Source of the DNA: Salvia splendens
Lineage: Eukaryota; Streptophyta; Magnoliopsida; Lamiales; Lamiaceae
Direction of reading: 5' to 3'
NCBI RefSeq assembly: GCF_004379255.2
Contig: NC_056041.1
Coordinates: 21,917,559-21,981,558, forward strand
Length of the DNA: 64,000 nucleotides
Shown one piece after another: positions 4,997-64,000 of this stretch. Position 1 is the first letter of the stretch; every line of letters starts with the position of its first letter. Position numbers and translations under genes: made by a program. Below the pieces are notes generated by a model. The model was given only the letters and a program-made list of their open reading frames with translations, was not told the origin of the DNA and ran no database searches.

Positions 4997-5601
4997 TGTA
5001 ATAATGGAGTGCTCATTTCAGTTGGAAGAAGAAGGCAGAGTTCGGTAAGCTCGGCTTTGAGCTGGAACTAGCCGAGAAGAAGAAGGCAGAAGAAGGAAGC
5101 TCGGCTTTGAGCTGGAACTAGCCGAGAAGGAAGTTCGGTTGTGAGCCGAGAAGGGAGTTCGGTCTTGAGCCAAGAAGGGAGTTCGGTCTTGAGCCGAGAA
5201 GGGAGTTCGGTCTTGAGCCGAGAAGGGAGTTCGGTCTTGAGCCGAGAAGGGAGTTCGGTCTTGAGCCGAGAAGGAAGAAGCAACCTAGCCGAACTAGCCG
5301 TTGGAGCAGCAGTTAGTTAGCTGAGATGTAGCGGTTATTCTTCTTGTTTTCTTGATTCTTCTTGTAGTTAGTTAGTAGCAGTTGCTACTTGTTTGTAGAG
5401 CTTTAAATAGCTCATAAACCGTGTATGTAGTTTAGTAGGAGTTTAATCAATAAAGAGTTTTCCAGTTTCTCTCCAAGATTATCATCTTCAATACTCAAAG
5501 TGTGAGTGTGTGTGTTTCTGCATTGTGTGATCTCATACAACGGTGAGTGTGTGTGTGATCTTCTTGAGTGTGTGAAAGCCTTGTGTGTGCGAATCCCAAC
5601 A
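4997..5601 (+). repeat. 5' LTR of Copia 1
   Basis: Starts TG and ends CA, 605 bp. It contains five copies of a 24-bp unit (GTTCGGTCTTGAGCC...) at 5157-5276, against three in the 3' LTR. A region with TTTAAATAGC near 5402-5412 may be the TATA box, and AATAAAGAG near 5449 resembles a polyadenylation signal. Confidence 0.94.
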
Positions 5602-5621: not shown

Positions 5622-5664
5622 GGGATATTGAAGCTGATTTGCAGAGGATCAAACGGTTTCAGAG

Positions 5665-12479: not shown

Positions 12480-14482
12480 GAGCACCCACAACCGTGCTCT
12501 TGCCAGCGAGCACAGTTGTGGGTCCGACCCCACTTTTTCTGCCTGCTCTTCGGCAAGAGCACAATACCCACAGCTGTGCTCCTCCGCAAGGACGAGCACA
12601 ATTCAATTTAAAATTCAATTAAATAAAAACATTTCCATAATATTAAAATTCATTAAAAAACTAAAATATATTACAAATTACAAATAAAATAAAAAAGACA
12701 TAATTATGAACTTTTGAAAAATTAAAAATTATATAATTAAAATCCTAAAAATTAAAAATTACATAATTAAATTCATAAAATTAAAAAAAACCACTACTCG
12801 TTGCCGAATTTCGCCCACATGTGTTTGATTAAGTCTTCTTGTAGCTCAATGTGGGTTCGGGTATCGCGCATTGTGTGCCTTGTTTCGAGCCTCTCCCCCA
12901 CCGTCGTATGCCGACCTCGGCATAGGGGAGACCTCGCGGTTGAGCTTCCAGCTTCATGTTGTGTAAGATAATACACGTATACATGATGTGTAAGATAATA
13001 CACGTATACATGATGTCGGCGATATTATTCACGTACCAGAGCCGAGCCGGGGCCTGCACATTGTTGAATCGGGCTTGAAGGACCCCAAAGGCTCTTTCGA
13101 CGTCTTTCCGCATAGACTCTTGACGCTGCGCAAAAATAACCCGTCTCGGGTCTTGCGGGTTGCTGAGCGTCTTCACGAAAGTCGACCACCTTGGGTAGAT
13201 ACCATCGGCGAGATAGTAACCCATGTGGTATGTATTTCCGTTAATGGTGAAGTTGATCGCCGGTGCTACACCATTCATCACATCGTTGAAGAAAGGTGAA
13301 GAATAGAGCACGTTTAGGTCGTTGTTGGATCCGGCAACGCTGAAATATGCATGTCAAATCCATAGGCGGTAGTCGGCGACCGCCTCAAGGATAAGTGTTG
13401 GGCCGCCGCCTTTGTGACTGCTTAAGTGTTGCCTCATCCAAGCAGTCGGGCAATTCTTCCACCTCCAATGCATGCAGTCAATGCTGCCAAGCATTCCGGG
13501 AAAGCCATGGACTGGTTCGTGAAGACGAAGCAACCGTTGGCAATCATCGATGGTGGGTACCCGAAGGAATTCATCACCGAAAGCTGTACGAACGACATCG
13601 CAAAAAATTTTTAGACAAAGGATTTCAGTGGACTCACCGACATGCAAATACTCGTCGAAGAGATCGACCGTTTGCCCAGTAGCGAGTTGTCGGATGGCAC
13701 ACGTACACTTCTGCAACGACGTGATACTTTGCCGGCCGACTGCATCTGGACCTGTTTGGAAGAATTCAACACGTGCAGACAATGTGTTGACAATTCGCAT
13801 AAACAAGCGCTTTGACATGAGAAAACGACGCCTGAAGTAATCTGCCGGAAATCGCGGCTGGTCGGCAAAATAGTCGGCAACGAGCCTTTCGTGGGCTCCC
13901 TCCCGGTCACGATGGATGTAGCGGCGAGTTGATCTAGTTCGTTGAGGAGGAGGAGCAGGGGTATTCGCCGCGACATATGCTTCATAAGCGGCACAATGTT
14001 GTTCGTAGTATTCTTGTTCTTCGCACTCCGCTTCCTCCATAAGATGGGTGAAATCCATTTGAGGTTTTGAGTGAGAGATGAATGTGAAGATATGTTGTAT
14101 GAAAATTATGAATGAGAGATGAATGAAGGATGATTTGATGTGATAAATGGATGATGAATGTGTGTATTTATAGATGATTTTGGGAAAAAAAAATAAAAAA
14201 ATCAAAGAAATACAGAAAAAGGGCAAAAAACGACCATATTTTTGGGATTTGGAAAATATTTTTTTTATTTTTATCAGTTTTTATAATTAAATACCGAATT
14301 TTTAAAAAATAAAAAATAAAAATATTCAAAGGCAATGGCTATGTCGTTGCCCAATCGTAGCACGCCTCGTTAGCTGCTCGCTGGCACGGACGTGCTCGAT
14401 GCATCGAGCAGCGCTGTGCCAGCGGCGCGGGCGCAGCGGCGGACGACCTCCTCCGTGCCGCTGGCGCGGACGGACGGACGAC
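12480..14482 (-). mobile_element. PIF/Harbinger element H4 (transposase-only), right end truncated
   Basis: The left end GAGCACCCACAACCGTGCTC follows TTA (12477-12479) and matches the H1 left end over about 55 bp and, with small differences, about 300 bp of AT-rich 3' region. The right side shares with H1 the TATTTATAGATG promoter-like stretch and CAAAGGCAAYGGCTATG, but the terminal 13 bp and second target duplication are missing. The end abuts exon 2 of the response regulator relic. The only gene is a transposase. Confidence 0.82.
12794..14058 (-). pseudogene. PIF/Harbinger DDE transposase (ALP1/HARBI1-like), disrupted
   Basis: The likely start is ATG 14058 (MDFTHLMEEAE). The frame reads RDREGAHERLVADYFADQP, the first catalytic Asp in MLGSIDCMHWRWKNCP, then a TGA at 13356-13354 in place of a Trp conserved in H5 and H7. 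It goes on through AGSNNDLNVL (second Asp) and VERAFGVLQARF (Glu). A 27-bp tandem duplication repeats IMYTCIILH at about 12960-13015. After it the frame shifts, and the true C-terminus (THIELQEDLIKHMWAKF) is found in another frame ending at 12794. Inactive. Confidence 0.85.
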
Positions 14483-16332: not shown

Positions 16333-19300
16333 TCAAAGCCATCTACCAACATGCTTAACACCTAAGCTCTCAAAGTGCTTGTTGTGTTTTGCTATACATA
16401 ACGGTTTGGTGAAAGGATCAGCCAAGTTATCATCAGTGGGTACTCTTTCTAATTTTATGTCGCCTCTTTCAATTATTTCTCTAATCAGATGATATCTTCT
16501 GGGAACATGCTTGTTCCTGTTCGTAGCTCTGGGTTCTTTTGCTTGCGCAACAACACCAGTGTTGTCACAACACAAAGGTATTGCACTATTGGCACTCGGA
16601 ATGACACTCAGTTCTTTAACGAACTCTAACAAAGCAACAACTTCTTTGGCAGCTTCAGATGCAGCAATATACTCGGCTTCGGTGGTGGAATCGGCAGTTG
16701 TACCTTGTTTGGAACTATTCCAACTCACTGCTCCACCATTGAGGACAAAAACATATCCAGACTGAGACTTATAGTCGTCATGGTATGTTTGGAAACTAGC
16801 ATCAGTGTACCCAGTAACTGATAACTCTGGTTGTCCACCATAGACTAAGAAATATTCTTTAGTCCTTCTAAGGTACTTAAGAATAGTCTTAACAGTTTTC
16901 CAATGTTCCTCACCGGGATTTTGCTGAAATCTGCCTGTCATGCTAAGCGCATAGGCCACATCTGGCCTAGTAGAAATCATGGCATACATAATAGATCCTA
17001 TAGCCGAAGCATACGGGATCCTTTTCATGTTGTCTCTTTCTTTGTCATTAGAAGGACAATCCTTCTTTGACAATACAATGTCATGTCCCATAGGAAGAAA
17101 ACATTTCTTAGAATTCTCCATTGAGAAGCGCCTTAGCAACTTGTCTATGTAAGTGGATTGTGATAATCCTAACATCCTATTTGGTCTATCTCGATAGATC
17201 TTAATTCCAAGGATGTAGGAAGCATCACCCAGATCCTTCATCATAAAGGAACTAGACAACCATTCTTTCACGGATTGCATCATGGAACGATCGCTTCCCA
17301 TAATCAAGATGTCATCAACATATATGATAAGGTATACGACGTTTCCATTTTCGCGTTTACTATAAACACATGGATCCTCTTTGCTTCTGACGAAACCAAA
17401 CGATTTGATTGTTCTGTCAAAACAAATATTCCAACTCCTTGAAGCTTGCTTAAGTCCATAGATGGACTTCTTTAGCTTGCACACTGATTCAGCCTTTCTT
17501 TTGATACAAAACCTTCAGGCTGCGTCATATAGACATCACCTTCTAATTCTCTATTGAGAAATGCGGTTTTGACATCCATTTGCCAAATGTCAAAATTGTA
17601 GTATGCAGCAATTGCAAGTAATATCCTAATGGACTTGATCTTAGCAACTGGCGAAAAGGTTTCATCATAGTCAATGCCTTCGCGTTGACTATAACCATTT
17701 GCCACTAACCTAGCCTTGTAGGTTTGTACTTTGCCATCTGCATCTCTCTTCTTTTTGAAGATCCATTTGCAACCTATGGGGTAAACCCCATCTGGCAAGT
17801 CAACTAGTTCCCAGACTAAGTTGAAGTACATCGAGTCCATTTCAGATATCAAGGCTTCAAGCCACTTCTCTCGATCGGTGTCTGACACCGCCTCGGTATA
17901 GGTCTTAGGCTCATCGTCATCTAAATCAACTTCATCATCTTGGTTCTCAACCATTAGATTCAGTCTCTCAGGTGCACGACGACTCCTTCTAGGCCTATTG
18001 AGTTGGTTTTCTTCTGGCTCGGGCTGTTCATTCTGAATGTGAGTAGGTTCAGGTATATCACTATGATCTTCTTGAGGTAGAGGTGATGCAACTATTGTAT
18101 CATCTTGTCTTTGATGCATCTCATTGTCTTGAGGAGGTTCTTCGAGAGTCCCTCTAAGGTCTCCTCCAATAGTAATTTCCCCTCCCAGTAGATCATCAAA
18201 TACTCCCACTGAGTTATTGTTCAAACCATTTGATAATACCCCATTCTCAATGTTATCTTGTGGTTCTTGAATTTCTTCAAGATCTACCATGTTGTGACTT
18301 TGTTCCTTTAAGACATAAGTGTCTTCAAGAAACTTCACCTTCCTAGAGATTATCACCTTGTGATCTCCGGGGCAGTAGAATTCATATCCCCTAGTTTGTT
18401 TAGGATATCCCACAAAGTAACACTTCTCACTTTTAGATTCCAACTTATCAGTCATTTGTTTCTTAACAAAAGCTGGACAACCCCAAGTCCGCATATAGTT
18501 ATGACAAGGCTTTTTGTCATACCATAACTCATATGATGTTTTCTCAACTGATTTAGATGGAACTCTATTCAGAATGTAAATAGCAGTCAATAAAGCATGA
18601 CCCCAGAGAAATAAAGGAAGACTAGCTAAACTCATCATGGATCGAACCATATCTAATAATGTTCGGTTTCTCCTTTCAGATACTCCATTCATTTGTGGTG
18701 TACCAGGAGGTGTCCAGTCCGACTGAATTCCGTGCGATTTCAAGTAATCAAGAAATTCTCGGCTCAAGTATTCCCCTCCTCGATCTGATCGAAGAGTTTT
18801 TATACTTTTCCCAAGTTGTTTCTCAACTTCACACTTAAACTCTATAAATTTCTCAAAGGCCTCAGTTTGTGTTTCATAAGATACACATATCCATACCTTG
18901 TCAAATCATCAGTGAAAGTAATGAAGTACGAATAACCACCTTTTGCTTGAGTTGGAAACGGTCCGCACACATCTGTGTGGATCAACTCTAGCACATCATT
19001 AGCACACACCCCTTTCCCAGAAAGTGGCTTATTAGTCATCTTTCCTTTGAGACAGAATTCACAAGCACCATATGATTCAAAATCAAATGAATTTAGATAG
19101 TCTAAATTTCTCAATCTCGCTATCCTTTTCTCATTGATATGACCAAGTCTACAATGCCAAAGATAAGTAGCATTATCCGTATTACATAGCTTAAGTCTTT
19201 TATTTTGCACATTGAGAATATCCCGTTTGCATTCAAGCATATATAATCCATTCTCTAAAGAGGCATTTCCATAAAACAATCCATTATTAGAAAACGAACA

Positions 19301-19741
19301 CCTGCTGTTTGCAAAATGGAAGGAAAAACCTTCGATGTCCAACATCGGAATGGAAATAATATTCTTTGAAATAACTGGAACGAAATAACAATTATGTAAA
19401 TCTAGTCTAAGTCCTGAGGGAAGATCTAATCTATAAGTTCCCACGCGTTCGGCAGCAACTTTTGCTCCATTTCCAACACGTAGGTCTACTTCCCTAGGCC
19501 TCACTTTCCTGCTGTCAATTAAACCTTGCACATTATTACAAATGTGTGAACCACAAGCGGTATCCAATACCCAGGATTGTGAGTTATTCATAGACATATT
19601 TATCTCAATAACAAACATAGCTGAGCTCCCACTCATTGCACCTTGTGCCTTGAGTTTTGGGCAGTCTCTCTGCCACTCCGTGAAATTTGACCTAGTCAAT
19701 TTGTTTGTTTCCATCATACACTCATAAGATAAGTTTGACAT
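16333..19741 (-). pseudogene. Copia pol (protease-integrase-RT-RNase H) with gag deletion and two frameshifts
   Basis: Three overlapping frames form one polyprotein. The first (19741-18842) joins the gag start to the end of a zinc knuckle (WQRDCPK), then has a protease-like WVLDTACGSHIC and a pre-integrase LWHCRLGHI. A frameshift near 18842-18860 leads into integrase ([14 protein letters not shown]) and RT ([14 protein letters not shown]). A second shift near 17475 leads into YVDDILIMGSD and the RNase H block TDASFQTYHDDYKSQSGY. Gag is almost wholly missing, so the copy is not autonomous. Confidence 0.9.
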
Positions 19742-20913
19742 ATTATCTGAACAGAAAATAAAACGAAAAACAAATTAGAAAAGCATATAAAGATCACATT
19801 CGCATCACTAATCAAACAAGGGTTTATTGTATTGATTAGCTCCCACTAATTTTAACATATATTATGCCCCCAAACATAAAATACGAATTTATATCAAATA
19901 TAAATTTTAGTGGTCCAAGATCCAAGTCTATATAGTTGTAGCCTCTGCGAGGGCTGATGACTACAATAATATCACCAGGTAGGCCTCCAAGCCAATTGTA
20001 ACAACAATTTTACAATTCTTGGTTTATTAATCTAATTAATATGCGTCCATAAATCATTTGGTTGCGAGGGCTACTCAAAATAATTTAAGCAAGTCAACCC
20101 CATCACACGTTGCCAACCATGCATCTATGAATGAGCCTAAACCTTGTAGATTTAGAATAAACGCGAGGGCGTAAAACTCGTGGTCGAAAAGACTAGGAAC
20201 ATCAAACAATTGTGATGGACGACGCGTTTGTTTCAAAAAACAAGACTTATATTTTATGGGGAATAATTTTGTGATACTAATTTTGTGAATATAATATCCA
20301 ATATTAAATTTCAAACAATTACTGGGCGCCGCCTACCCAAACATAGTATAACACGGACTACAAATACTGGGCGCCGCCTGCCCAGACATAGTATAACACG
20401 GACTACACATACTGGGCGCCGCCTACCCAGACGTAATATAACACGGTCTCTAACTACTATAGTTAAATAAAATAAGCATAAAATCAAATAGCATGCTTAT
20501 CACATAAGATATCAAATAATGCTCAACAAATAAAATCAAATTTTATTCTTTAATTAAATGTGGATTTAATTATTTATATTAATTTTAAATTAATACAAAA
20601 TTATAAAATACTAATCCAATTAATATTTATTAACGTAATTGGGATATACTATTATTTTAAAAGGAAATCTACTTACATTACATAAATCAATTAGATTACG
20701 TAAATTTTGAAAGGAAATCTGCCTTATTATTTTAAATGGAAATCCAATTGCATTACGTAAATTTTGATTGAAATCTAATTTCAATTTTTCCAACTTGAAA
20801 TCTAATTTCTCATGTGACCGTACATTCCCAGAATTCAAAATTTATTCCAATTACATTACCACGGTTAATCCACAAATAATTCGCAAACAAAATAATTATG
20901 AATCGAGCCATGA
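19742..20913 (-). other. Copia 2 leader region
   Basis: About 1.2 kb between the primer-binding site and the first open frame. It is AT-rich and shows no gag domain. It contains three 45-bp tandem repeats at 20321-20455. Confidence 0.6.
20321..20455. repeat. Three 45-bp tandem repeats in the Copia 2 leader
   Basis: Units at 20321, 20366 and 20411 each begin ACTGGGCGCCGCCTRCCC and then AT-rich sequence with ATAACACGG. They differ at only a few positions. The GC-rich core contains the palindrome GGCGCC. Confidence 0.9.
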
Positions 20914-33342: not shown

Positions 33343-35199
33343 GGGCACCCACAATGGGGCGCCCGATGGCACGCCCTATGCGTGCCATCGTCCTCGGGCG
33401 CGGACGATGCCTCCATTATGGGTGCTCGCCATAGGGCGCGCCCTATGCCCACGCCCTAAGCTTCGGGCGCGGAAAAAGCGCGGACGATAGCCTATCGTCC
33501 GCGCCATCGAGCACCATTGTGGGCTCGGCGGACGATGGCACGCGTTTTTGAATTATCTTTTTTTTTCCGAATTTTGTCTATTTAAACCTCGTTTTTCATT
33601 CACTTGTTCATACGAACATCTCGCCTCTCTCATTTCTCTCATCTCTCACATTTCTACCTCTCTCACATACCAAAATGAACCACGACGACGACACTAGTTC
33701 TAGTTCCTCGGAGTCAGGTAGTCCGACCTCGGAAGCCTTAGATGCAGCCGTTGAAGAGGCCATGGCAGAATGCTTAGTCTAAATGCAGCGCGAGGAGGTG
33801 GCGGCGGAGCAGATCCATAGGCCTATTCGACATCGGACGGTTGTCCGACGCGACCACGCGGCAACTCACCAACGTCTGATTGCAGACCATTTTGTCGAGC
33901 AACCACGGTGGGGACCGACTGTTTTCCGCCGCCGGTTTAGAATGCCGCGTTACCTTTTTCTTAGCATTGTCCGGACTTTGTCGTCACGTGATGAATACAT
34001 GACGTATCGGGAAGATGGCGTCGGCAGACCCGGCCTTACACTGTTGCAAAAGTGCACGGCTGCACTCCGTCAGTTGGCCTACGGCACCACGGCGGTCATT
34101 TTCGACGAGTACCTCCATGTCGGGGAGACAACAGGCCGGGAGTGCCTGAAGAGATTTTGTAGGGGACCTGTGGAGGCCTACGGCGACACATATTTGCGCA
34201 GACCGACTGCCGTTGATTGTCAGGGCCTAATGAAGATGCACGAGACGGCGCACGGCTTTCCTAGGATGCTAGGGAGCATCGACTGTATGCACTGGGAGTG
34301 GAAGAATTGTCCGACGGCGTGGAGAGGCCAATTCACTAGTGGATACAAGGACAGCCACCCGACGATGATCCTCGAAGCCTTCGCTGACCATCGGCTCTGG
34401 ATCTGGCATGCTTACTTCGGCGTGGCCAGGTCGAACAATGACATTAACGTACTCAACTCATCCACCCTCTTCACCGAGCAATGCAATGGCAACTGCCCGG
34501 CCATCGAGTTCACTGTCAACAGGCGCCAATACCACATGAGGTACTATTTGGCCGATGACATATACCCACGGTGGCCTGTTTTTGTGAAGACGATCAGCTG
34601 CCCAATTGGTGAGAAGAGGGTTTTATTTTCGCAAAAGCAGGAGGCGGCGCGGAAGGATGCCGAGCGGGCATTTGGTGTGCTCCAAGCACAGTGGGCAATT
34701 GTGAAAGGGCCGGCTCGTCTCTGGTTCAAGGAAGTCATCGCCGATGTCATGTATGCGTGCATAATCATGCACAACATGATAGTCGAGCATGAAGGTGGGA
34801 CCATCACCGACTGGAACGATGATGAAGGTGCATCTAGCTCGTCCAGCACGGCGACCGAGCCCCCCGCTAGAGGATTACCGACGGGCTTCAATGAGGTTCT
34901 ATCTAGACATGCCTCAATGCGCAACCAACAAGACCATGCCCAGCTCATGAACGACATGATTGAAGAAGTGTGGGCCCGTAACCGTCGTCGCTGAGTGTGC
35001 GTATTTTTTAATTCGTATTGTAATGTATTAATTTTTATAAATGAAATGAAGTTTTTTCTCAATTTTTGTAGTTATTTAAATATTCAAATAAAAGAAAATG
35101 CATAGGGCGCGTCTTAGGGCGCCACACTGCAGGTGGGAGGGTAGGAGGATAAAATTGATTATGTGGCGGTGTATAGGGCGCGCCCCATTGCTAATGCTC
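33343..35199 (+). mobile_element. PIF/Harbinger element H7 (transposase-only)
   Basis: Ends GGGCACCCACAATGGGGCGC and GCGCCCCATTGCTAATGCTC are imperfect inverted repeats with TAA duplications (33340-33342, 35200-35202). The single plus-strand gene is a transposase, preceded by a TATTTAAACC box near 33580. There is no ORF1. GC-rich subterminal repeats (GCGCCCTA, GCGCGCCC) flank it. The family also includes H5. Confidence 0.88.
33675..34994 (+). CDS. PIF/Harbinger DDE transposase, nearly intact
   Basis: The frame opens at ATG 33675 (MNHDDDTSS), meets one TAA at 33780-33782 and continues from ATG 33783 for 403 aa. The part after the stop holds the whole catalytic domain: DHAATHQRLIADHF, a helix-turn-helix-like TLLQKCTAALRQLAYG, GSIDCMHWEWKNCP (Asp), ARSNNDINVL (Asp), and AERAFGVLQAQW (Glu) followed by DVMYACIIMHNM. 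Only 36 N-terminal residues precede the stop, so internal initiation could still give a full catalytic domain. Family members cut and paste Harbinger DNA with the help of ORF1. Activity is untested. Confidence 0.85.
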
Positions 35200-42652: not shown

Positions 42653-43149
42653 GGCCTCGTTTGATTGTCTGTTAGGCCTTGATAGGCCACACAATTTTAC
42701 CACTATCATTGGTTTGTTTGGTATGAAACACAACCCCAAATACCAGGGATATACCCACTGACCCGGTAGAAATTCAGATAGCAACCTACCAAATCCTGCT
42801 TCTCCTATCCCACCCTCACTCTCCGATAAAGAACTATGTCGGTCTTCTGGTTAGCCGCTTTCTGCTGAAATGTCGAATACATCCCTCTCCTTGTTCCCTC
42901 CTACGAATTTAACCTCAATTTCAATTTGATTTAACACAAGATCCTGAAATCGCTTCAATTGGGGGTTTTAAAACAAGGTCCTCAAATCGCTGCAAATTTT
43001 GGTATGTTAGACAGGCAATTTGCTGTCAATAAGAACGACGCCGACGAATCGAGGTGCACCCATTTACTGCAATTCCTCTCTGAAAGCGTATTACTTTGTT
43101 TTGCATTGAAATCGCTTCAAATTACGCGACGAATCTCGCTCGATTCTGC

Positions 43150-45044
43150 ATGGCTAATGAGGACGACATAACTAAGGTACACAATGTTCGTCGTTATTTC
43201 AATAATTCTTTATTAGGTCGATGCGTACCCAAATTTTCCCAATTCGACGTGGTTTTGGTTCAACGTATTCGAAGCTGTAGATCTTGGTACTTGGGTTGTA
43301 TTGATTTTTAAATTTTGCGGGCTGTCAATTGCTATACAGGTCTTCATCTCAACCTTCTGAAGGGTCGCTAATTTGATTTTGTGAATAAGTTCAGGCAATT
43401 GCATATAAGGAATGCCTAATTCGTGGATGTTTGAACTCGTTTGAACCGCAGTTTTTATAAATGATTGCTGGATTCGATTGTGTTTTTTTGGATTGTAATG
43501 TACTGGCTGGCTGCACCTATGTGCTTATGTATATTCATTATTCTGAATGGGTCTGGTCCTTTTTTTTTATTGAAGCTGTGGTGTTGTACTGATATCGAAT
43601 CTGTGTTTGGCTTCATCAGGGTGAACGTAGGCGTCATGAATTGACAACCGTGTTGATTTTATTGGAGGAAATACTTCTGAATCATCAAATCAATATGTTG
43701 CTCATATCTTTTATAATCACCCTCATTGGCCCAGAAACTCGTAAGCGCAAACGATTGGATAGGGTAGGAATTTCTCCTGTGCTCGACACAATACCTGCTC
43801 ATGTTAAGCATCTAGATAGACTTGTTCGTGTCAGTGATCGGGCATGTGTGGATAACTTACGGATGGATAGGAACACATTTGGGCGTCTTTGTCGCATTCT
43901 TCGTGATCGTGTAGGCTTGATAGACCAGAAATTCGTCACTGTAGAAGAACAAGTTGCTATGTTTCTGTGTGTTCTTTCCCACCACACAAAAGCGCGGATA
44001 GTTGGGTTCAAATTCATGCGGTCATCCCAAACCGTGTCAAAGTACATACACACTGTGCTACGTGGGTTGCTGACGCTACACAATCTTTTTTTAGTAAAGC
44101 CCACTCCTATAGATGAGGCTTGCTCTGACCGGCGTTGGAATTGGTTTCAGGTTTGCACGCTAAAACACAATGTTTTTTGATTAGTCAAACTTGCAGAATT
44201 AATATATCTCCGTGTAATTAATTTTGGTTATTCAATACAGGGATGTCTTGGCGCATTAGATGGAACCTATATCAACGTCCGAGTTCCGGTTGCTGACGCA
44301 CCTCGTTACAGAAATAGGAAAGGGCAAATCACGACAAACACACTTGCCGTGTGTGACCCACACCTACGCTTCACTTACATTCTGCCAGGATGGGAGGGAT
44401 CCGCTGGTGATTCAAGGATTTTGCGGGATGCAGTTAGTAGTCCTCTCGGTCTAAAAGTGCCTAAAGGTAATAATCTAACCAAGTATGCGATACATCTACT
44501 GGTTATAGTCCAAAAGTAATCATCCAATTTGTTCGGCGCCAAGCCAAATGTAGTCATCCAGTTGCTGATGTTTGTGTCAGGTTGTTACTACCTCTGCGAT
44601 AACGTGTATGCTAATGCCGAGGGGTTTGTGACGCCCTATAAAGGAGTACGTTATCATTTGAAGGAATGGGGCCCTGGTAGGCAAGCACCTCAAACCCCGG
44701 AAGAGCTGTTCAACTTGAGACACACAAAGGCCCGAAATGTCATCGAACGATCGTTTGCGGTGCTGAAAATGCGATGGGGCATACTCCGCTCTGCAAGTTT
44801 CTACCCGATAGAGGTTCAAACGGGTTTGATCATAGCATGCTTCTTACTACACAACTACATCAGAGGTGAAATGGCTGTGGATCCAATTGAGGCAGAGTTG
44901 AGCAATGAAGCAAATGATGAGGAAGAAAATGAGACTGATTCGGCTAATAGTGAACATATCAGCAGCGTTGAACCTTCAACAGCGTGGACCAAGAAACGAG
45001 ATGATCTTGCAAGAGCTATGTGGGCGGAGAGAACTGCACTGTAA
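43150..45044 (+). CDS. HARBI1-type DDE transposase, intact, 4 exons (415 aa)
   Basis: Exons 43150-43176, 43620-44150, 44241-44466 and 44581-45044, all GT-AG, join to 1248 bases with no stop. The N-terminal MANEDDITK is followed by a helical DNA-binding-type region (MDRNTFGRLCRILRDR, VEEQVAMFLCVLSHHTKAR, SSQTVSKYIHTVLRGLL). The catalytic triad is D193 (GALDGTYINV), D243 (GWEGSAGDSRIL) and E317 (RNVIERSFAVLKMRW), with the conserved YYLCDNVYANAEGF and LLHNYIRGE blocks. It would act in the nucleus on the H8 ends with the MYB/SANT partner. Unlike H4, H5 and H7 it has introns and no lesion. Nearest host relatives are HARBI1/ALP1-like proteins. Confidence 0.9.
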
Positions 45045-45575
45045 CCGGCGTTTCCCGTGAGCTACTATTAACCTTCTAGTTTCGTCTTGAGATTATTCCA
45101 AACGGATTTTTTTTAACTGTTGCCTTGTTTAAAATTAACACCTTTCATTGAACCACCGTTTGTATTCAACATTGTTACAATTGATATTCGATCGTCATCA
45201 GTTTTATATTGATTAAAAGTTTATATTGATTCACATAAAATGTTATGCAGATAAAAGTCATAGTCATGACAGTTTTTTGGTGGACAAGATTAAAACCAAC
45301 TAAACATAATACCTTAGGCTTCATTAAATTTCATTACAACGCATATGCCATTACAAGAGAGATGCTAGATTACTTGGAAAATTGGCACCATTTAATCTAA
45401 AAAGACTACCATAGAACTACTAAAACATAAAATACTTAACCATAAACTAAGGGCCCATGGGCTGCACCATAGAGTTGGAAAACTTGGTCCACGCCGTGCA
45501 CCCTTTACAACAACTAATACGAATCTACATACGACCTAAACAACACCGCATGCTTAAGGATTTTAAGCGGCGAAG
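45045..45575. other. Shared 3' region of the transposase and B3 genes
   Basis: The two genes converge here. AT-rich, no open frame of note; it should hold both polyadenylation regions. Confidence 0.5.
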
Positions 45576-46533
45576 TTAAGCACGATCGAACCACACGTAG
45601 AAGATGATTTCATTACGGTCAATGAGCTTGAAATGACAACGATGACCGACGGCCAGTCGGTTGGCCTCCTTGAAATGACGCCACCCTCGCTTCACCCAAA
45701 TTTTCGTGGCGCTATGAGCAAGATTGACCAACCATGTTTCTCCGTCCACATTGAAGTACACGGGGTCAAAAAGGGCCGCCATACGAATATGGCGTTGCCA
45801 AAATGCATAGGGGATCTCCAGTGTGCGGCTTATGTTGGCACGCGACAGAGTCACGGTGAAAGTTGGGCAACCGTCGTCTTCTAACACTCCTGCGTCGGAC
45901 GCATAGTCGTCATCATCCGAAGAATCAGCCTCAGTCTCCGACGGCTCGTATTCGTCTGAGGTATCCACATCCTCAGTGTAACTGTTGTCCGAAACCTCGT
46001 CATCTACAGCTACTCATTATGCCAAAACGGAGGGTTTATTAGGGTAAGTCTAATATTTCTAAAATCACGTTTAATATAATTGCATATACTCACGTTCTAC
46101 ATCACTTCGAGGGGGCATCCACTACCCCCCTTGTATCTTTTGACTTGGAAAACCCCCACGTCCACCAACGTGAATGTGAGCAAGTCCTCATGGACAATCC
46201 TGTTGTGGATACGGAATTGCGCCCATCCAACATGGAAGTGGCAGCCACTAGCGATCCGAAGGAGGTGTACGGGCCATTGCCTGCCCCTAGCCATCACAAG
46301 GCGGCAGTCAAAAGGGAGCTCCTGTCCATGGACCGCAACAAACTCGGGTGGAAGTCGCTGTACAGCGTGAGACGGAGTAGAGTGCATGAATGTGGCATGA
46401 GATTAAGGTAAAAATAAATGGTATAAGAATGAAAGAAGCACGGCGTTACCAACTCATCCATGCTTGTGTCCTCCGAGAACCTTTTGAAGAATGAGGGAAG
46501 CCTAAGGTAATCCCTTTCATCGTTGTTGGCCAT
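45576..46533 (-). CDS. Two-domain B3 (REM-like) DNA-binding protein carried by H8, 3 exons
   Basis: Exons 46533-46450, 46357-46126 and about 46003-45576 give about 247 aa (250-251 if the third exon starts at 46009 or 46012; all three keep frame). The first B3 domain spans YLRLPSFFKRFSEDTSMDEL, LPPEFVAVHGQELP and HFHVGWAQFRIHNRIVHEDLL; an acidic linker (SETEADSSDDDDYASD) follows; the second B3 domain reads FTVTLSRANISRTLEIPYAFW and IWVKRGWRHFKEANRLAVGH. B3 domains are plant-specific DNA-binding beta-barrels; two in tandem with an acidic linker suggest the REM family. The gene lies between the transposase and the MYB gene, inside the element ends. A role in transposition or in silencing escape is speculation. 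The exon 2 donor (GGGGG|GTAGTGG) is the least certain junction. Confidence 0.8.
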
Positions 46534-47078
46534 CTGATTTTGTCAAACGCTGAATGGGAGACTGACTTTGATTAGAGGAGCTTGAATTAGTGGGTTTTAA
46601 TACTCGAAAGTAACTGCAAACATGGAGTTTGAAAAGATTTGATGGTGGCTAGACACTGCCATGAATTGATGAGTGAAAGATGGGTTGGTTTGACTCAAAT
46701 AAATACAACCATGTATTATTAAATGCACTCAACCTTCCATATATGGTTGGAAAATGCATATGCCTTTTTTAATGTATGCACAAACAAATCATGGAATTGA
46801 AATATATCCATTTCAGATGACTCCAAAATAAATTACATTAATCACACAGTTTGAACAAGTTCAACAATATACAATTGCATACTACAAAATATTAGAGTTG
46901 GATCCGATCATATACAGTCATCGGATGTAAATGCATCGCCAACTCAAGTAGTTATATCCTACAGATTACTTCCATCGATGTTAATATAGTCTGATGGTAA
47001 ACATCCCAAAACAGAAGGATCACTGAGATCCACAAAAAACACAAACGTCTTCTAACAAGTGTCTGATGATTACAGCGC
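46534..47078. other. B3 promoter region and MYB gene 3' region
   Basis: The two minus-strand genes are separated by about 545 bp, so B3 probably has its own promoter here. TATTAAAAC near 46595 is a weak TATA candidate. Confidence 0.4.
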
Positions 47079-48610
47079 TTAAATCATCTCATCTTCTTCC
47101 AAAAGGTCGAAAACAAATGCTGCCCTAGCAACTTCAGCCAACCCTCGAAACAGGTCCATGAGCTCCGGCTCCTTAACTAGCTTCTTAGAAACATAGAACT
47201 GTTGTTTAAGAGTTAAGCCGGGAATACCTTTCAGTTGGTCAAACACTTCAGACCTTTTCGTACTAAGATCGAATTCGTAACCAATCCTAGCCGAAATCTC
47301 TTTAAGTCGATCGTTTGTGTCAGTGTGGATCTGGCTCATAAGATGAAGCACTCCATCCATATTGTCATCTAATTTCCTTTTCTTCACAACTTTGTTAGCC
47401 ACATTAGGCCCACTCCGAGCCCGAGCCCGAGCCCCAGTCTCAGCCCCAGCCCCATCCCCATCCCCATCCCCACAACCTGCCCCTGACCCAGCCCCATCCC
47501 CACAGCCTGCCCCTGACCCAGACCCACCAACTGTCCCTGCCCCTGCCTCTGAACCAGATACACCACCTGCTCCAAACACATGCCCAGCACCAGCCCCAGC
47601 ACCCCCTCCCTCAGTATAGGACTGACTTTCATCTACCATCTCAGGGAGAACTCCATCCGGGAATGATTCGTCCGGAAATAGGTCCTGCAACGTCATGTGT
47701 TGGGATATTCCAACATCGTCAGTCGGGTACTCTTTAGTACCATAGATTCTTCCAACTGCCTCACTGACGTGAACCTTATTGGCACCATCAGCACGGTCCT
47801 TGCCGAATATCTCCTTCCAATCTTCTATTAGAGACCATGATTTGTTCCTCATGTACTTAGCATTGCTATCTTTCTGCGGATATTAGTAAACATACAACTC
47901 GTATTAGCACAGGCAAGTATATTAGTATTTGTTTCTAACAAGCAGAATCATATATTAGCTAACCAAATGCATATAAACTTTGATATTGTTTCATACAAAC
48001 AAATACAATAATCAACGCATCATACAAATCAACTCTCCATATGCACATACAATAGACACAATTTCGTACATAAGGATATTGTTCCATATATATACAGAAT
48101 GAATAATATACCTTAACAAATTGAGCCCATTGTTCATCATCACACTCGATTTTGTATTTACCGTCCGAGCTGAACCCGATTCCACTATGGTTAAGCATCA
48201 TCATGAGCGACCCGTAATTCTTCTTCCAAGTTGTTATCTTCGAGTAGATATGGGGGTGAGTGAGGATATCGGTATTGGGAAATTCAAGCTTGATCGCCTC
48301 CCTGATACGTGTTAGATAACCTGCCCGGTAACCATTATCTCCCCTCCAACCATTCGCGGCCAATTCCTTCATCGTAGCCAACAGGATCTCTTCCTCGCGA
48401 ACTGACCAAGTTCGTCGGGACCTGTCGGTTTTCACATTCTTTGCGGTTCCAACGTCGTTGCTGCCTGCAACAAGATTTAGGGCCATTGAAACAGGGTCGC
48501 GCAATGTTTTCCGAGTTTGTTAAACACAGCAATATATACTGTAAAAAATTATTACCCTCGAGTGGTGGGCTACCATCTTCGTCGGCACCTCCGAGCTGAT
48601 CACCAGCCAT
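47079..48610 (-). CDS. MYB/SANT-like DNA-binding protein (Harbinger ORF1), intact, 3 exons (400 aa)
   Basis: Exons 48610-48556, 48464-48112 and 47873-47079 join to 1203 bases with no stop. The MYB/SANT-like domain (Myb_DNA-bind_3 type) is at about residues 36-136: RRTWSVREEEILLATMKELA, THPHIYSKITTWKKNYG, DDEQWAQFVK. Exon 3 has KSWSLIEDWKEIFGKDRADG, an unusual Gly/Ala/Asp low-complexity run at about 47390-47620 and a C-terminal helical domain (LKQQFYVSKKLVKEPELMDL). It is the likely partner that binds the H8 ends and recruits the transposase. It starts about 490 bp from the right end. Confidence 0.88.
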
Positions 48611-49099
48611 TGAAAATCAGACTCTGAATCGGTTCAGATCAAACACTGCAGACAAGTATATTGCAGACAAATTGATTCGATGTGAATGTTGATACAAAAC
48701 AAACCGAAATTGTCGCCATATCCGAACTGAATGTTGATAGAAAACATACCTTCACGCAGCACGTTATCGGAAGTTGATTCGGGAGAAGCGGTCCTCCGAT
48801 TTTTGTGAAGCGAGAGTTTGCCGCGCGTTCATTCTAAATTAGGGGGCGGCTATTTTATTTTTATGTGAATTAGGGTGGATGAGGACAAAGTTGGAATAAA
48901 GCATGTTTTTTGAGGACAATTTTGTCCAATCCATTTGCTATCAAGGATTTGTGAAGGATGAATCAAAGCAAGTATAACTCTCTTGGTCCTATGAATCATA
49001 CCAACCAAAACTCACATGATATATGGTGAAGTAACAACAATCATGGTTTAACTGATTGTAATAACACTATCTGACCCATCCCTAAGAGACCAATCAAAC

Positions 49100-49319
49100 G
49101 AAAGTGTGGCTAGATTTAATCCACTCAGATAGAAGGGGGTTGGATATGGAGTAGAAGATGCTAGTATTCACAATTTAATACACAATTAATTTATTTAAAT
49201 GTAGATACATGTATCACCCAATTCAAATTTATGAGTTCCTCCTTTTTTTACGTGACAATTTAATTATCTTATTTGAGCCCAAATTGCAAATGGTTTTTTT
49301 TATGAGACAAATCTCAAAT
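49100..49319. repeat. Right flank of H8, also present at the empty site
   Basis: GAAAGTGTGGCTAGATTT... is repeated with very few differences at 51339-51555, after which the two loci diverge. Confidence 0.9.
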
Positions 49320-59326: not shown

Positions 59327-59411
59327 GGATGGCATTATTAACTGTTATTGAGAGAGATATTTTGGCGTATATACTGTTCATAATTTTTCTCTTTTCTTTT
59401 CGTTTCAGTTT

Positions 59412-60977
59412 ATGAGCAGCAGTTCGGCTCCTGAGCAGTGGAGGCCGAAGATACTTCAGCGAGGATCTATACTCGTAACCACTCGATCCGGCTTGTCGAT
59501 GGCTTTGTCTGACTTAGGTTCGAGTAGTGACGAGGAGCAATACACCATAGAAGGACCAATACCGGAAGAGATACCAAGGATAGAGGGAAACCCAAGAAGG
59601 ATGGCCGCTCAAGGAGAAGAAAATCCTGAGATCGGGACGCTGAACGCACATACCGAGGGAGAACCACGTCAAGCCATAGTTGTGACCCCAGGAAAAACTG
59701 CCTGTGATGTGAAGCCTCATGTGATCGCAATTCTGCCTACATACTGCAGAAAGAGTTACGAAGGGCCTTACGGGTTCCTTCATGAGTTTTGTAAGATTTG
59801 TAGGGCGCAGAGGAGGCCAGCAGGGGCGACCGAGGATGATTACAGATTGAAGGCTTTGCCGTTCGTTTTGAAAGGGGAGGCAAACACCTGGTTCATGCGC
59901 CTGCCCTCCGACTCCATTGAGAGTTGGACCGATTTCAAGTCAGTATTCCTAGGCGAGTTTTTCCCATCATCCAAGACGAGCGCGCTGAAGAGGGAAATAA
60001 CTAGTGTGAAGCAAGGGTACGATGAACCCTTGAGCGATTATTGGGCGAGGTATATGAGCCTTTTAGATGCATGTCCCAATCATCGCATGGCGGACATTGA
60101 GATACATCATACTTTCTATGAGGGGATGAACATAACAACCAAGGACCTGGCCAATTCGTCGTCGGGAGGAAGCTTCACACAGCTAAGGGTCAGCGAAGCA
60201 AAGAGGGTCCTAAGGAAGCTACTGAGTGCGAAGAAGGAGTATGACCATTCAAGGGATGGATACAACCGAGAAAGGGTTGCAAGTGCCTCGTCTACTGACC
60301 AGGAGCAGAAGCTTGAACAGAAGATGGACTTGAAGATGGATGAGCTGAAGAAGTCACTCCTGAGCGCAATCGAGAAGAATACACCGTCGGTTTCCCCAGT
60401 TGGGAACTACAAGGGTGCAGAACAGGGAAACCAATGACAGAGCTATGATCAGCCAAACGACTCGGTCAGCATGGAACAGGCTAATGCTGCCGGGTATTTT
60501 AACTCAAATGGGAATTGGATCCAGGGGAGACAACGGGACGCACCATGGAGGGATCACCCAAACTTTCGATGGGGAGATGGGAACCAAAATCAAAACTAAG
60601 GTCAAGGTCAGAACCAATATAACCCCCACCAAAACCAAAACCCCAACCGTGGACCAGCAAACCCGGACCACCAGTTCAACTGGTCACGAAGGAACCAATA
60701 ATCCCATAACCAAAATCCTGTTTATGTACCACCCCACCAGAGAAACTTCCAAAATTATCAAAATCAGCCGAATCAAGCACCCCAACACCATCAGAACCAA
60801 AATCAGTTCCAAAACCAAAATCAGAACCAATATCACCAGGATCAGTACAACCCTCCTGGCCAGTATAACAAGTACCCACCTAACCAGAACCAGCAAAACT
60901 TCCAAAATTCCCAGCCCAACCAAAGTTCCCAGTACAACCAGCACCAAGGCCCAAATCAGTCACAATACCCTAGGTAG
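59412..60977 (+). pseudogene. Athila-type Gag with three premature stops
   Basis: ATG 59412 (MSSSSAPEQW) opens a frame to TAG 60975-60977, interrupted at 60435 (TGA), 60597 (TAA) and 60699 (TAA), all in the same frame. A retrotransposon-gag domain is seen (LKALPFVLKGEANTWFMRLP, WTDFKSVFLGEFFP, ITSVKQGYDEPLSDYWARY). After the first stop the frame encodes a long Gln/Asn/Pro-rich tail (NQNQYNPHQNQNPN). The two TAA stops fall within Gln codons' context. Inactive copy. Confidence 0.88.
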
Positions 60978-61430
60978 TTGCTTACTGTTTAGCTAGATTA
61001 GGTAGTCGTTTACTCAGTCTAGGGGGTAATTGGGTCTGTCGGTATTGATGTTTGACTCCAGTAAGTTTTCTGTGTCCTAGGTCTAGCGTTTACATTTCTT
61101 GCCTAAATCTAGTGGTAGTTTAAATCTCAACCCCTTTGTGTGGCAGCAGCCGTTTGTTCCCATAGTCTCTTAGCACTACTTTGCGAATCCATCTCTGTGG
61201 GATCGACCCCACTTCCCTATACTAATTCATAGTATTCGGGTTGAGGGATTTATTTTTGAAGAGGAGTCGAGTGTGTCCAACGACAAAAACACTGTAGTTC
61301 TCTAGAGTTCCTGGACCCAGTGATCCAGCGGATTTAAGGAGCGTTGTATCTGGACCGAGCTTTGCATTAATTCTCATATGTGCACACTCGCTTACTCCTG
61401 AGTCTAGTCATTCGACATTAGAGTCGAGCG
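60978..61430 (+). repeat. LTR-like block between gag and pol
   Basis: It contains GTGTGGCAGCAGCC, TCTCTGTGGGATCGACCCC, CTATACTAATTCATAGTAT and CCTGGACCCAGTGATCCAGCGG, matching the last 260 bp of the solo LTR at 38028-39481 rather than any gag or pol sequence. It resembles the 3' part of an LTR inserted or recombined into the element. The boundaries are approximate. Confidence 0.6.
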
Positions 61431-64000
61431 ATTACATCCTCCACTTCAAGAGACCATTCCCTTTCCGCTTTGTTACAAAAAGAAAGAAGGAGAACCCGGT
61501 GGACTACTTGTCGATTTTTGGGAAATTGGATGCCACCATACCATTCCTCCAAGCCGTGAAGCTACCCCTACTTGGGAAGTTCATTAAGGAATTCATAGCC
61601 GGGAAAGCCCAAGAGGATGGGAAGATCATGGTAGAAGGGATCGCGTCTGCAATTGTGCAGGAGAAGCTACCGCCCAAGAGGGCCGATCCAGGTATGTTCA
61701 CTCTACCCATAACTATAGGAGATGTGAAAGTCGAGCATGTAATGTGTGATCTTGGAGCTTCTATTAATGTCATGCCTTTGTCAATCTATAACCGATTGAA
61801 GAGAGTTTGATTGTCGAGCACTAGAGTGTTGATCCAACTGGCTGATAGGTCATGCATAAGTCCTGAGGGTGTTCTAGAAAATGTGTTGGTTAGAGTGCAT
61901 GATTTTACCTACCTTGCTGACTTCTATGTGATCAAAATGAGTGAGTCCGAGGCTAGGGAATCTAGTGGCATATTGTTAGGAAGGCCATTTTTTAGAACGG
62001 CCAAGACAATAGTAGACATGGCCGAGGGGACAATTTGCATTGATTTCCATGGAGAGAAATTTACTTTTGATATCAATGAGGCCATGAAGAAACCTATTGA
62101 TTCTGAAAACTTGTGCTATGTTGATGTGATTGACCCCCTTGTCCAAGATTTTCTTGAGACCGAACTATTGCAAGAGAAGCTCCAAGCTTTAGATGTTTAT
62201 GAGCAGGCGGACATAGAAGCTGCTGCATGGTGTGATCTGATCAGTAGCCAAGGGTTAACCGATGAAGAGATAGAGGGAGTAATTAAGGACTTCTGCCAGA
62301 AATCAGAATTTATTGGAGCCACAGGGGCCAAGCTACCAGTCAGTATAGAGGAATCTTTAGAGGGAGAAATAGAGAAAGAATGAGAGGCTGAGAAAAACCC
62401 TCTACCCGAAGACACGCTTCCACCCCAAGTTGAGCTGAAGAAATTGCCATCGAATTTGAAGTATGCCTTCCTCGGAGAGGAGAACTCATATCCGGTGATC
62501 ATCAGCAGCAGCCTTACAAAGGAACAAGAGGCAAGGCTATTGACTGTGTTGAGTAAGAACAAGAAAGCAATTGGATGGAGCCTTACAGATTTAGTGGGAA
62601 TAAGTCCCGATGTATGCATGCACCACATCAGGCTGGAAGAGGGAGCAAAGGCACATCGAGATGCCCAAAGGAAGGTAAACCCCGACATGCGAGAAGAAAT
62701 ATTGAAGGAAATCTTGAAATTATTGTCGCTAGGGATTATCTATTCAGTGTCAGATAGTGAGTGGGTCAGCCTGATCCACATGGTCCCAAAGAAGTCGGGA
62801 ATCCAAGTCGTTCAAAATGAGAGGAATGAGCTGATCCCAACGAGGCTGGTCACGGGTTGGCGAATGTGCATCGATTACCGTAAGCTAAATAATGCGACCA
62901 GGAAGGACCATTTTCCCTTGCCTTTCATCGACCAAATGTTGGAGAGATTAGCTGGGAAAAAGTACTTTTGTTTTCTAGATGGGTACAACGGATACTTCCA
63001 AATTTACGTAGATCCTGAAGACCAGGATAAGACCACCTTCACTTGCCCATTCGGAACCTATGCATACAGGCGCATGCCTTTCGGCTTATGTAACGCTCCA
63101 GGTACGTTTCAACGATGTATGATGAGCATATTCTCTGATCTGATTGAGGAATGTATAGAGATATTCATGGATGACTTCACGGTCTACGGAGACTCTTTCG
63201 ACTCATGCCTTCATCATTTGGACGTAGTTCTAGAAATGTGTCAAGCAAAAAGTCTGGTTTTGAATTTTGAGAAGTGCCATTTTATGGTCACCGAAGGGAT
63301 AGTTTTAGGACACGTGGTCTCAGAAAGAGGAATCCAGGTGGATCGAGCCAAGGTGGATGTTATATCCAAATTACCATTCCCTACTGATCAGAAGGGGTTA
63401 AGAGGTTTTCTAGGGCACGCCGGATTTTATCGAAGATTTATCAAGGATTTCTCCAAGATCGCCCAACCCCTTACCCGACTTCTTCATAATGAAGTGGAGT
63501 TCGTTTTTGATGAGCAATGCAAGGCCGCTTTCAACCTTCTCAAGGAAAAGCTGATATCCGCACCTATCATACGGGCTCCTGACTGGGACTACCCTTTCGA
63601 AGTAATGTGCGATGCCAGCGATTATGCAGTGGGAGCCGTACTGGGTCAGAAGATCGATGGGAAGAGGTACGTAATTTTTTATGCCTCTAAGACTCTGAAT
63701 CAAGCCCAGCGGAATTACGATACCACTGAAAAAGAGATGCTGGCAGTGGTGTATTCTTTCGACAAGTTCCGGCCATATTTGTTAGGATCCAAGGTCATCG
63801 TTTATACTGACCACGCAGCGATTAAGTATCTGATTGCCAAGAAAGAATCCAAACCCCGTTTGATCCGATGGGTCCTCTTGTTACAAGAATTTGATTGGGC
63901 GGTGGAAGATAAGAGATGAGTCGAGAACAAGGTGGTGGACCATTTGAGTAGAACAGTGCAAGATGGAAACAGCGAAGAGGTGCACGACAAGTTTCCAAAG
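61431..64000 (+). pseudogene. Athila-type Pol (protease, RT, RNase H), stops, incomplete at right edge
   Basis: One frame (through 61499) encodes RPFPFRFVTKRKKENP, a protease (CDLGASINVMPLSIY), a stop at 61808-61810, a linker, a stop at 62381-62383, then RT ([46 protein letters not shown]) and RNase H ([33 protein letters not shown]), a stop at 63917-63919 and the continuing chromatin-side linker VENKVVDHLSR. Integrase should lie beyond the window. Catalytic residues are kept, but three stops make it defective. Confidence 0.9.

What the first reader, a model, noticed from the sequence alone, without database searches (positions are those of the whole stretch)
42653..49099. PIF/Harbinger element carrying a third gene, a two-domain B3 (REM-like) DNA-binding protein
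H8 encodes an intact HARBI1-type transposase (4 exons, D193/D243/E317) and an intact MYB/SANT-like ORF1 (3 exons). Between them lies a three-exon gene with two B3 domains and an acidic linker. The joined frames total 1248, 1203 and about 744 bases without stops. PIF/Harbinger elements are known for two genes; a plant transcription-factor-type DNA-binding gene as stable cargo would be a new layout. It could help bind the element ends, control element genes, or act on host genes.
Basis: partly seen in the sequence, partly recalled or inferred. Interest (0 to 1): 0.92.

Follow-up and report, generated by a model that had tools for sequence, protein, structure and literature searches.

The report
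Three-gene plant Harbinger transposon with B3
In scarlet sage, a large group of jumping genes of the PIF/Harbinger kind carries, besides its two usual genes, one or more plant-type B3 DNA-binding genes that jump with it and are kept in working order by selection, which suggests the element took over a plant regulator for its own use.

Summary
The window is Salvia splendens. The element (42653 to about 49102) encodes an open 415-aa HARBI1-type transposase, an open 400-aa Myb/SANT ORF1 and, between them, a two-domain B3 gene. One detail was wrong: this copy's B3 exon 2 is frameshifted unless another splice site is used; an intact copy exists.

Genome-wide, the B3 gene belongs to the element. Of the 150 best-scored transposase hits, 77 have a B3 exon within 6 kb, all 77 downstream; among other listed Harbinger hits, 2 of 107 (within 6.5 kb). 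Of 79 transposase/ORF1 pairs, 55 have one to three B3 hits between them. Copies 99.8-99.9% identical sit at unrelated sites with TTA/TAA duplications. B3 exons show dN/dS of about 0.13, equal to the transposase, and B3 and transposase distances correlate (r = 0.96, 21 loci). Two layouts occur: one B3 gene facing the transposase, or one to three B3 hits in its direction. Named homologues came from S. splendens, S. hispanica and S. divinorum only.

My searches of an open-licence library found no B3 gene described in a Harbinger element. Function is inferred: most likely element regulation or counter-silencing; alternatively a transposition cofactor.

The parts
42653..49102 (.). whole PIF/Harbinger element; left terminal repeat GGCCTCGTTTGATTG from 42653, right terminal repeat about 49088-49102 (degraded, no clean target duplication)
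   Evidence: aligned to the C3:17.99M copy, whose ends and TTA duplication are clean
43150..43176 (+). transposase exon 1
   Evidence: spliced reading
43620..44150 (+). transposase exon 2
44241..44466 (+). transposase exon 3 (D193, D243)
44581..45044 (+). transposase exon 4 (E317)
45576..46009 (-). B3 gene exon 3: acidic linker and second B3 domain
46094..46357 (-). B3 gene exon 2: first B3 domain; frame shifted at the C-run 46111-46115 in this copy
   Evidence: the NCBI model fits an exon ending at 46126
46450..46533 (-). B3 gene exon 1 (start codon)
47079..47873 (-). ORF1 exon 3
48112..48464 (-). ORF1 exon 2 (Myb/SANT-like domain)
48556..48610 (-). ORF1 exon 1

Best explanation
A lineage of PIF/Harbinger transposons in Salvia has a third element gene, a two-domain B3 (REM-like) DNA-binding protein, placed between transposase and ORF1. 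Shown: it lies at the same place in dozens of copies, moves with the element, has shared the transposase's history within the main class, and is under purifying selection as strong as the transposase. Inferred: it is a working element function. Most likely (about 0.45 given the rest) its product binds element DNA and regulates it in trans: it raises expression of element genes or blocks or diverts host silencing, for instance by competing with host REM proteins that bring Pol IV to its targets. The confidence below is for the shown part.
For: Placement: 77 of the 150 scored transposase exon-4 hits have B3 exon 3 within 6 kb, 77 of 77 downstream; 55 of 79 transposase-ORF1 pairs have B3 between; other listed Harbinger hits 2 of 107 within 6.5 kb; 9 of 19 tagged, unmerged B3 gene models lie within six tags of an ORF1 model, 0.22 expected; 8 of 244 database proteins are merged models of B3 with ORF1 (7) or transposase (1). 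Movement: copies on C2 and C16 are 99.77% alike over 7,428 bp with unrelated flanks, both between TAA; the C3 copy (TTA) and the C6 copy (TAA) differ at 4 of 4,919 bp compared, i.e. 3,411 bp in the middle and the two ends. All three reading frames are open in the C3 copy. Selection: omega 0.135 (B3 exon 3, 24 sequences), 0.127 (exon 2, 20), 0.127 (transposase exon 4, 21); log-likelihood gains over omega 1 (kappa fixed at 1.5 in the null) 176, 111, 191. Shared history: Mantel r 0.957 over 21 loci, 0 of 5000 permutations. Mechanism hints: linker net charge median -19, B3 domains +2 and +4; B3 genes multiplied inside elements; Arabidopsis REM proteins recruit Pol IV (PMC12270911, abstract and passages); VANDAL elements encode sequence-specific anti-silencing proteins (PMC10398659, abstract).
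Against: No expression, binding or silencing data were available. The commonest 7-mer in the terminal 400 bp of four elements is no commoner than in internal stretches, so no B3 target was found. Of 79 transposase-ORF1 pairs, 24 have no listed B3 between them, so B3 is not kept in every related element; some may be deletion copies or have a B3 below the list's cut. Of 126 B3 clusters, 36 have neither gene in the capped lists within 8 kb. Only open frames entered the omega estimates. Across classes the B3 and transposase trees disagree for one lineage.
Confidence: 0.9

Rival explanations
1. The B3 protein is a cofactor of transposition: it binds subterminal DNA and helps ORF1 and transposase assemble on the ends or choose targets.
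For: PIF/Harbinger already splits DNA binding (ORF1) from catalysis (PMC2836001, passages); B3 is inherited with the transposase in the main class; a weak inverted match (E 0.009-0.36) sits near 57-80 / 90-112 bp from the ends in all four elements examined.
Against: Two element proteins sufficed in the assays of PMC2836001 (passages); related elements without a listed B3 exist; two or three diverged B3 genes in one element fit target diversification better (inference).
Confidence: 0.25
2. The B3 protein acts on host genes, for example reproductive-meristem genes, so that the element is expressed or replicated in the germ line.
For: Closest solved structures are B3 proteins At1g16640 and VRN1; 17 of the 53 homologue rows bear a REM name; REM genes are described as expressed mainly in flower, ovule and seed development (PMC6821719, abstract in listing).
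Against: No target data; such a benefit would be shared by all elements in the genome, which selects weakly for one element's own gene (inference).
Confidence: 0.15
3. Ordinary gene capture: a host gene carried passively, kept open only because it was captured recently.
For: DNA transposons, MULEs above all, tend to acquire host gene fragments (PMC6446971, abstract in listing).
Against: Omega about 0.13 among diverged copies; shared history with the transposase; homologues in three Salvia species; two to three B3 hits in some class II elements.
Confidence: 0.03
4. Host B3 genes form a tandem-rich family into whose neighbourhood Harbinger elements insert by chance.
For: 36 of 126 B3 clusters have neither transposase nor ORF1 in the capped lists within 8 kb.
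Against: 77 of 77 on the same side of the transposase; B3 lies inside copies bounded by TTA/TAA duplications at unrelated sites; 2 of 107 for other listed Harbinger hits.
Confidence: 0.01

Closest known systems
PIF/Harbinger (PIF, Ping/Pong) DNA transposons
   Same: HARBI1-type DDE transposase, Myb/SANT-like ORF1, TTA/TAA 3-bp duplication, short terminal inverted repeats
   Different: a third gene, or tandem B3 genes, conserved between the two usual genes
REM-type B3 transcription factors (At1g16640, VRN1; VDD, VAL, REM12/13)
   Same: two B3 domains; fold supported by model and sequence
   Different: encoded in a transposon, three-exon gene of about 250-260 aa; no REM subfamily placement by tree was made
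VANC anti-silencing proteins of VANDAL elements (PMC10398659, abstract)
   Same: a non-transposase gene that an element keeps for itself; proposed similar role
   Different: different superfamily and protein (recalled: VANDALs are Mutator-like); no repeated target found here
ALP1/ALP2, domesticated Harbinger nuclease and Myb protein in PRC2 (PMC7282668, passages)
   Same: Harbinger proteins tied to chromatin control
   Different: there, host genes taken from the element; here, a B3 gene inside the element
Pack-MULE-type gene capture (name recalled; PMC6446971 abstract in listing)
   Same: a host-type gene inside a DNA transposon
   Different: here a whole gene kept by selection with the transposase

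Membership tests
PIF/Harbinger | HARBI1-type DDE transposase | tested here: met
   Pfam DDE_Tnp_4 1.8e-22; D193, D243, E317
PIF/Harbinger | Myb/SANT-like ORF1 | tested here: met
   Pfam Myb_DNA-bind_3 3.3e-06
PIF/Harbinger | TTA/TAA 3-bp target duplication | tested here: met
   met in the C2, C16, C3, C6 and C10:24.09M copies; not visible in the window copy, and the C10:23.06M sister lacks a matching right end
PIF/Harbinger | terminal inverted repeats | tested here: met
   28 bp at 89% in C2, 27 bp at 96% in C10, 16-18 bp in C3 and the window
PIF/Harbinger | exactly two genes (usual description, PMC2836001 passages) | tested here: not met
   B3 gene(s) between them in 55 of 79 pairs
REM/B3 transcription factors | B3 domains | tested here: met
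   Pfam B3 1.6e-20, two stretches; model matches 1yel and 4i1k
REM/B3 transcription factors | placement inside the REM clade of plant B3 proteins | not tested
VANC-like anti-silencing system | binds repeats in noncoding element DNA and removes silencing | tested here: inconclusive
   no 7-mer commoner in the ends than inside; binding and methylation not testable with these tools
passive gene capture (Pack-type) | captured sequence evolves without purifying selection on the element | tested here: not met
   omega 0.127-0.135

The most novel reading that the evidence does not exclude
The B3 gene is a self-serving copy of a plant REM regulator. The element uses it to steer the host's Pol IV/RdDM or Polycomb targeting away from itself (or to switch itself on). 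It has been duplicated into up to three paralogues and passed between Harbinger lineages as a cassette, so that B3 targets diversify in an arms race like VANC in VANDAL elements.
Probability: 0.35. Interest if true: 0.93.

Novelty: new variant of a known kind. Interest (0 to 1): 0.8.

Why it matters
PIF/Harbinger elements are described as two-protein transposons (PMC2836001, PMC7282668, passages). A large, recently mobile clade with a third, selected gene of a plant transcription-factor family gives a natural system to ask how transposons recruit host regulators. Host REM B3 proteins guide Pol IV siRNA production (PMC12270911, abstract), so the finding makes a transposon counter-move against silencing directly testable. 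It also warns that B3/REM gene counts in Salvia may include transposon genes: 17 of the 53 homologue rows bear a REM name.

Tried and rejected
Chance insertion beside host B3 genes: rejected by one-sided placement and by clean target duplications around B3-bearing copies. Passive capture: rejected by selection and shared history. Independent repeated capture in class I: unlikely given Mantel r 0.957. A single origin for all classes was not settled. B3 genes of the I2b lineage sit among those of I2a/IIa (p-AU 0.048 for keeping them out, 0.076 for I2b as one B3 clade), while in the transposase tree IIa plus I2b as one clade is rejected (p-AU 0.010); this hints at exchange. Binding-site search in the ends: nothing commoner than inside. 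Database pieces (lgn, ena) were read as possible transcript evidence: of the nine I looked at (six B3, three ORF1), none joins two exons as a transcript would, as far as I can judge by eye, so they say nothing on splicing. Lone low-identity B3 hits as host source: the nine fetched fall into two repeated families, not a clear host gene. A test of the B3-lacking pairs for diverged B3 was not made.
Full report
What the window is. The best protein matches to the three genes are Salvia splendens, at 95-98% identity. The window is part of an 806-Mb plant assembly, contig C10 21917559-21981558.

The element. From 42653 to about 49102 lies a PIF/Harbinger element. The transposase runs on the + strand in four exons (415 aa; D193, D243, E317). 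ORF1 runs on the - strand in three exons (400 aa). Pfam finds DDE_Tnp_4, Myb_DNA-bind_3 and B3, the last in two stretches. The B3 gene lies on the - strand between the 3' ends of the other two. Its exon 2 is out of frame at its end in this copy: the C-run at 46111-46115 is one base shorter than in the three close copies aligned with it. These are the C3 copy, the C16:20.8M copy, and a roughly 99%-identical sister on C1 with large internal deletions; the C1 and C16:20.8M B3 genes are damaged elsewhere. Open readings of the window gene (211-253 aa) exist only with other splice sites, and the NCBI model P0001 fits one of them. The window copy also lacks a clean target duplication.

The B3 gene in other copies. 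Hit lists from the genome are capped at about 150 scored candidates, so counts are lower bounds. A search with B3 exon 3 gave 150 scored hits of 259 candidates, in 126 clusters, 22 of which hold more than one hit; some multi-hit clusters are broken pieces of one exon. A search with transposase exon 4 gave 150 scored hits of 7876 candidates. Within 6 kb, 77 of these 150 have a B3 hit, and in 77 of 77 it lies downstream of the transposase; chance is about 0.002 per hit. In 51 the nearest B3 faces the transposase; in 26 it runs the same way, 16 of them with two B3 hits, 9 with one, 1 with three. By identity to the window transposase, 58 of 81 hits at 70% or more have B3, and 19 of 69 below. With ORF1 (150 scored of 850), 79 transposases have a convergent ORF1 within 10 kb and 55 of those have one to three B3 hits between; 24 have none. 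The median spacing is 4.5 kb with B3 and 2.3 kb without. Of 126 B3 clusters, 55 have both genes within 8 kb, 24 the transposase only, 11 ORF1 only and 36 neither. As a control, of 150 listed hits to the transposase family, 107 lie outside the exon-4 list and 2 of these have B3 within 6.5 kb. Independent gene models agree: 9 of 19 tagged, unmerged B3 models sit within six tags of an ORF1 model, 0.22 expected and at most 4 in 10,000 draws (rows without a visible tag and merged models were left out). Of 244 database proteins, 8 are merged models of B3 with ORF1 (7) or transposase (1).

It moves. The C2 and C16:8.56M copies are 99.77% identical over 7,428 bp, have unrelated flanks, and are both bounded by TAA. 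The C3 copy is bounded by TTA. A copy on C6 is bounded by TAA and differs from it at 4 of the 4,919 bp compared: none in the 892 and 616 bp at the ends, 4 in 3,411 bp of the middle; the rest was not compared. In the C3 copy all three genes are open: 415, 392 and 260 aa, with exon bounds taken over from the window. A second layout (class II) has the B3 genes on the transposase's strand: the C10:24.09M copy is about 9.97 kb between TAA duplications, with two B3 genes and a fragment of a third. One of those two is frameshifted in that copy (my reading of the frames). Its sister at C10:23.06M shares the left end with TAA but not the right terminus.

It is selected. From 34 loci, 31 gave an open B3 exon 3, 28 an open exon 2 and 26 an open transposase exon 4; the rest were dropped for stops or short matches, and one locus each had no hit for exon 2 and for the transposase. 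Codon models give omega 0.135, 0.127 and 0.127, and fixing omega at 1 (kappa fixed at 1.5) costs 176, 111 and 191 log-likelihood units. Pairwise medians at dS 0.1-1.2 are 0.119, 0.141 and 0.107; among very close pairs (dS up to 0.1) single values are noisy, up to 0.68 for B3 and 1.6 for the transposase. Sampling only open frames may lower the values, but it was done in the same way for the transposase.

History. Transposase and B3 distances correlate at r 0.957 over 21 loci and 0.941 without the window group, the class II locus and L043 (18 loci). In the 100-row transposase tree (20 of the 24 B3-less pairs included), B3-bearing groups are clustered but mixed with B3-less ones; the fewest changes of the B3 label are 13, many near the tips and compatible with losses. 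Across classes the two trees disagree for the I2b lineage: AU p 0.048 for keeping I2b out of the I2a/IIa B3 clade, 0.076 for I2b as one B3 clade, and 0.010 against IIa plus I2b in the transposase tree. B3 exchange between element lineages is therefore possible, not shown. Named homologues are from S. splendens, S. hispanica and S. divinorum; S. miltiorrhiza, though present among the transposases, gives 0 of 53 B3 hits (six of the 53 are unnamed, and that search only reaches relatives sharing exact words). S. splendens is placed in subgenus Calosphace, S. miltiorrhiza is not.

The protein. An AlphaFold model of the S. hispanica relative P0002 from 23 sequences has two B3 folds (ten-residue blocks of pLDDT mostly 78-92) and a disordered linker; overall pLDDT 74.5, pTM 0.53. 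Closest solved structures are At1g16640 and VRN1. The linker's median net charge is -19, the domains +2 and +4.

How it may work. Shown: location, mobility, selection; the fold is predicted. Inferred: DNA binding, from the family. Not shown: targets, expression, role. I favour a regulator or counter-silencing role for three reasons: (a) two element proteins sufficed for transposition in studied relatives (PMC2836001, passages); (b) related elements without a listed B3 exist here; (c) B3 genes multiply inside elements. Host REM proteins recruit Pol IV (PMC12270911, abstract and passages), and VANDAL elements carry anti-silencing proteins (PMC10398659, abstract). A transposition cofactor and a host-gene regulator remain open.

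Literature. Searches for B3 with Harbinger, Salvia splendens with Harbinger, B3 with transposable elements and REM, extra Harbinger genes and B3 in Salvia listed no paper whose title or abstract start describes a B3 gene in a Harbinger element. I read passages of PMC9129072 and PMC8948837, where the B3 mentions are a reference title (the former) and host VAL proteins and another reference (the latter), and a term search of PMC2213677 found none of the six terms I tried for a further ORF. The other listed papers were seen only in the listings. The library holds open-licence papers only, so a description elsewhere cannot be excluded.

Noticed in passing
window 5638-9753 (+): An open 1371-aa Copia polyprotein (gag, integrase, RVT_2) with a repeated stretch at 5133 and 9815, so probably a nearly intact LTR retrotransposon.
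   Followed up: partly
window 16333-19774 (-): A second Copia element whose polyprotein pieces lie in three separate open frames.
   Followed up: no
window 33783-34994 (+): A single 403-aa open transposase of another Harbinger lineage (Plant_tran 8.6e-91); a fragment of the same Pfam family lies at 13354-14280 (-).
   Followed up: no
window 59352-63919 (+): Retrotransposon pieces: Retrotrans_gag at 59352-60437 and RVT_1/RNase H at 62384-63919.
   Followed up: no
G000 C5:39359266-39362586; about C10:24094618-24097750 (L048): Elements with three B3 hits or fragments in tandem; paralogues within one element fall into separate B3 lineages.
   Followed up: partly
G000 C18:794440-799416: A transposase with B3-like domains on both sides; nine single B3 domains fetched (L122-L129, L131) form two repeated families.
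   Followed up: partly
L094, L095, L099, L100 with L109-L111, L130 (I2b lineage): Transposases far from other B3-bearing lineages but B3 genes close to theirs: possible exchange of the B3 gene between element lineages.
   Followed up: partly
G000 C1:32347037 (L010): A roughly 99%-identical sister of the window copy with large internal deletions that kept part of the transposase, most of the B3 gene (with a stop, its last bases lost) and the ORF1-side end.
   Followed up: partly
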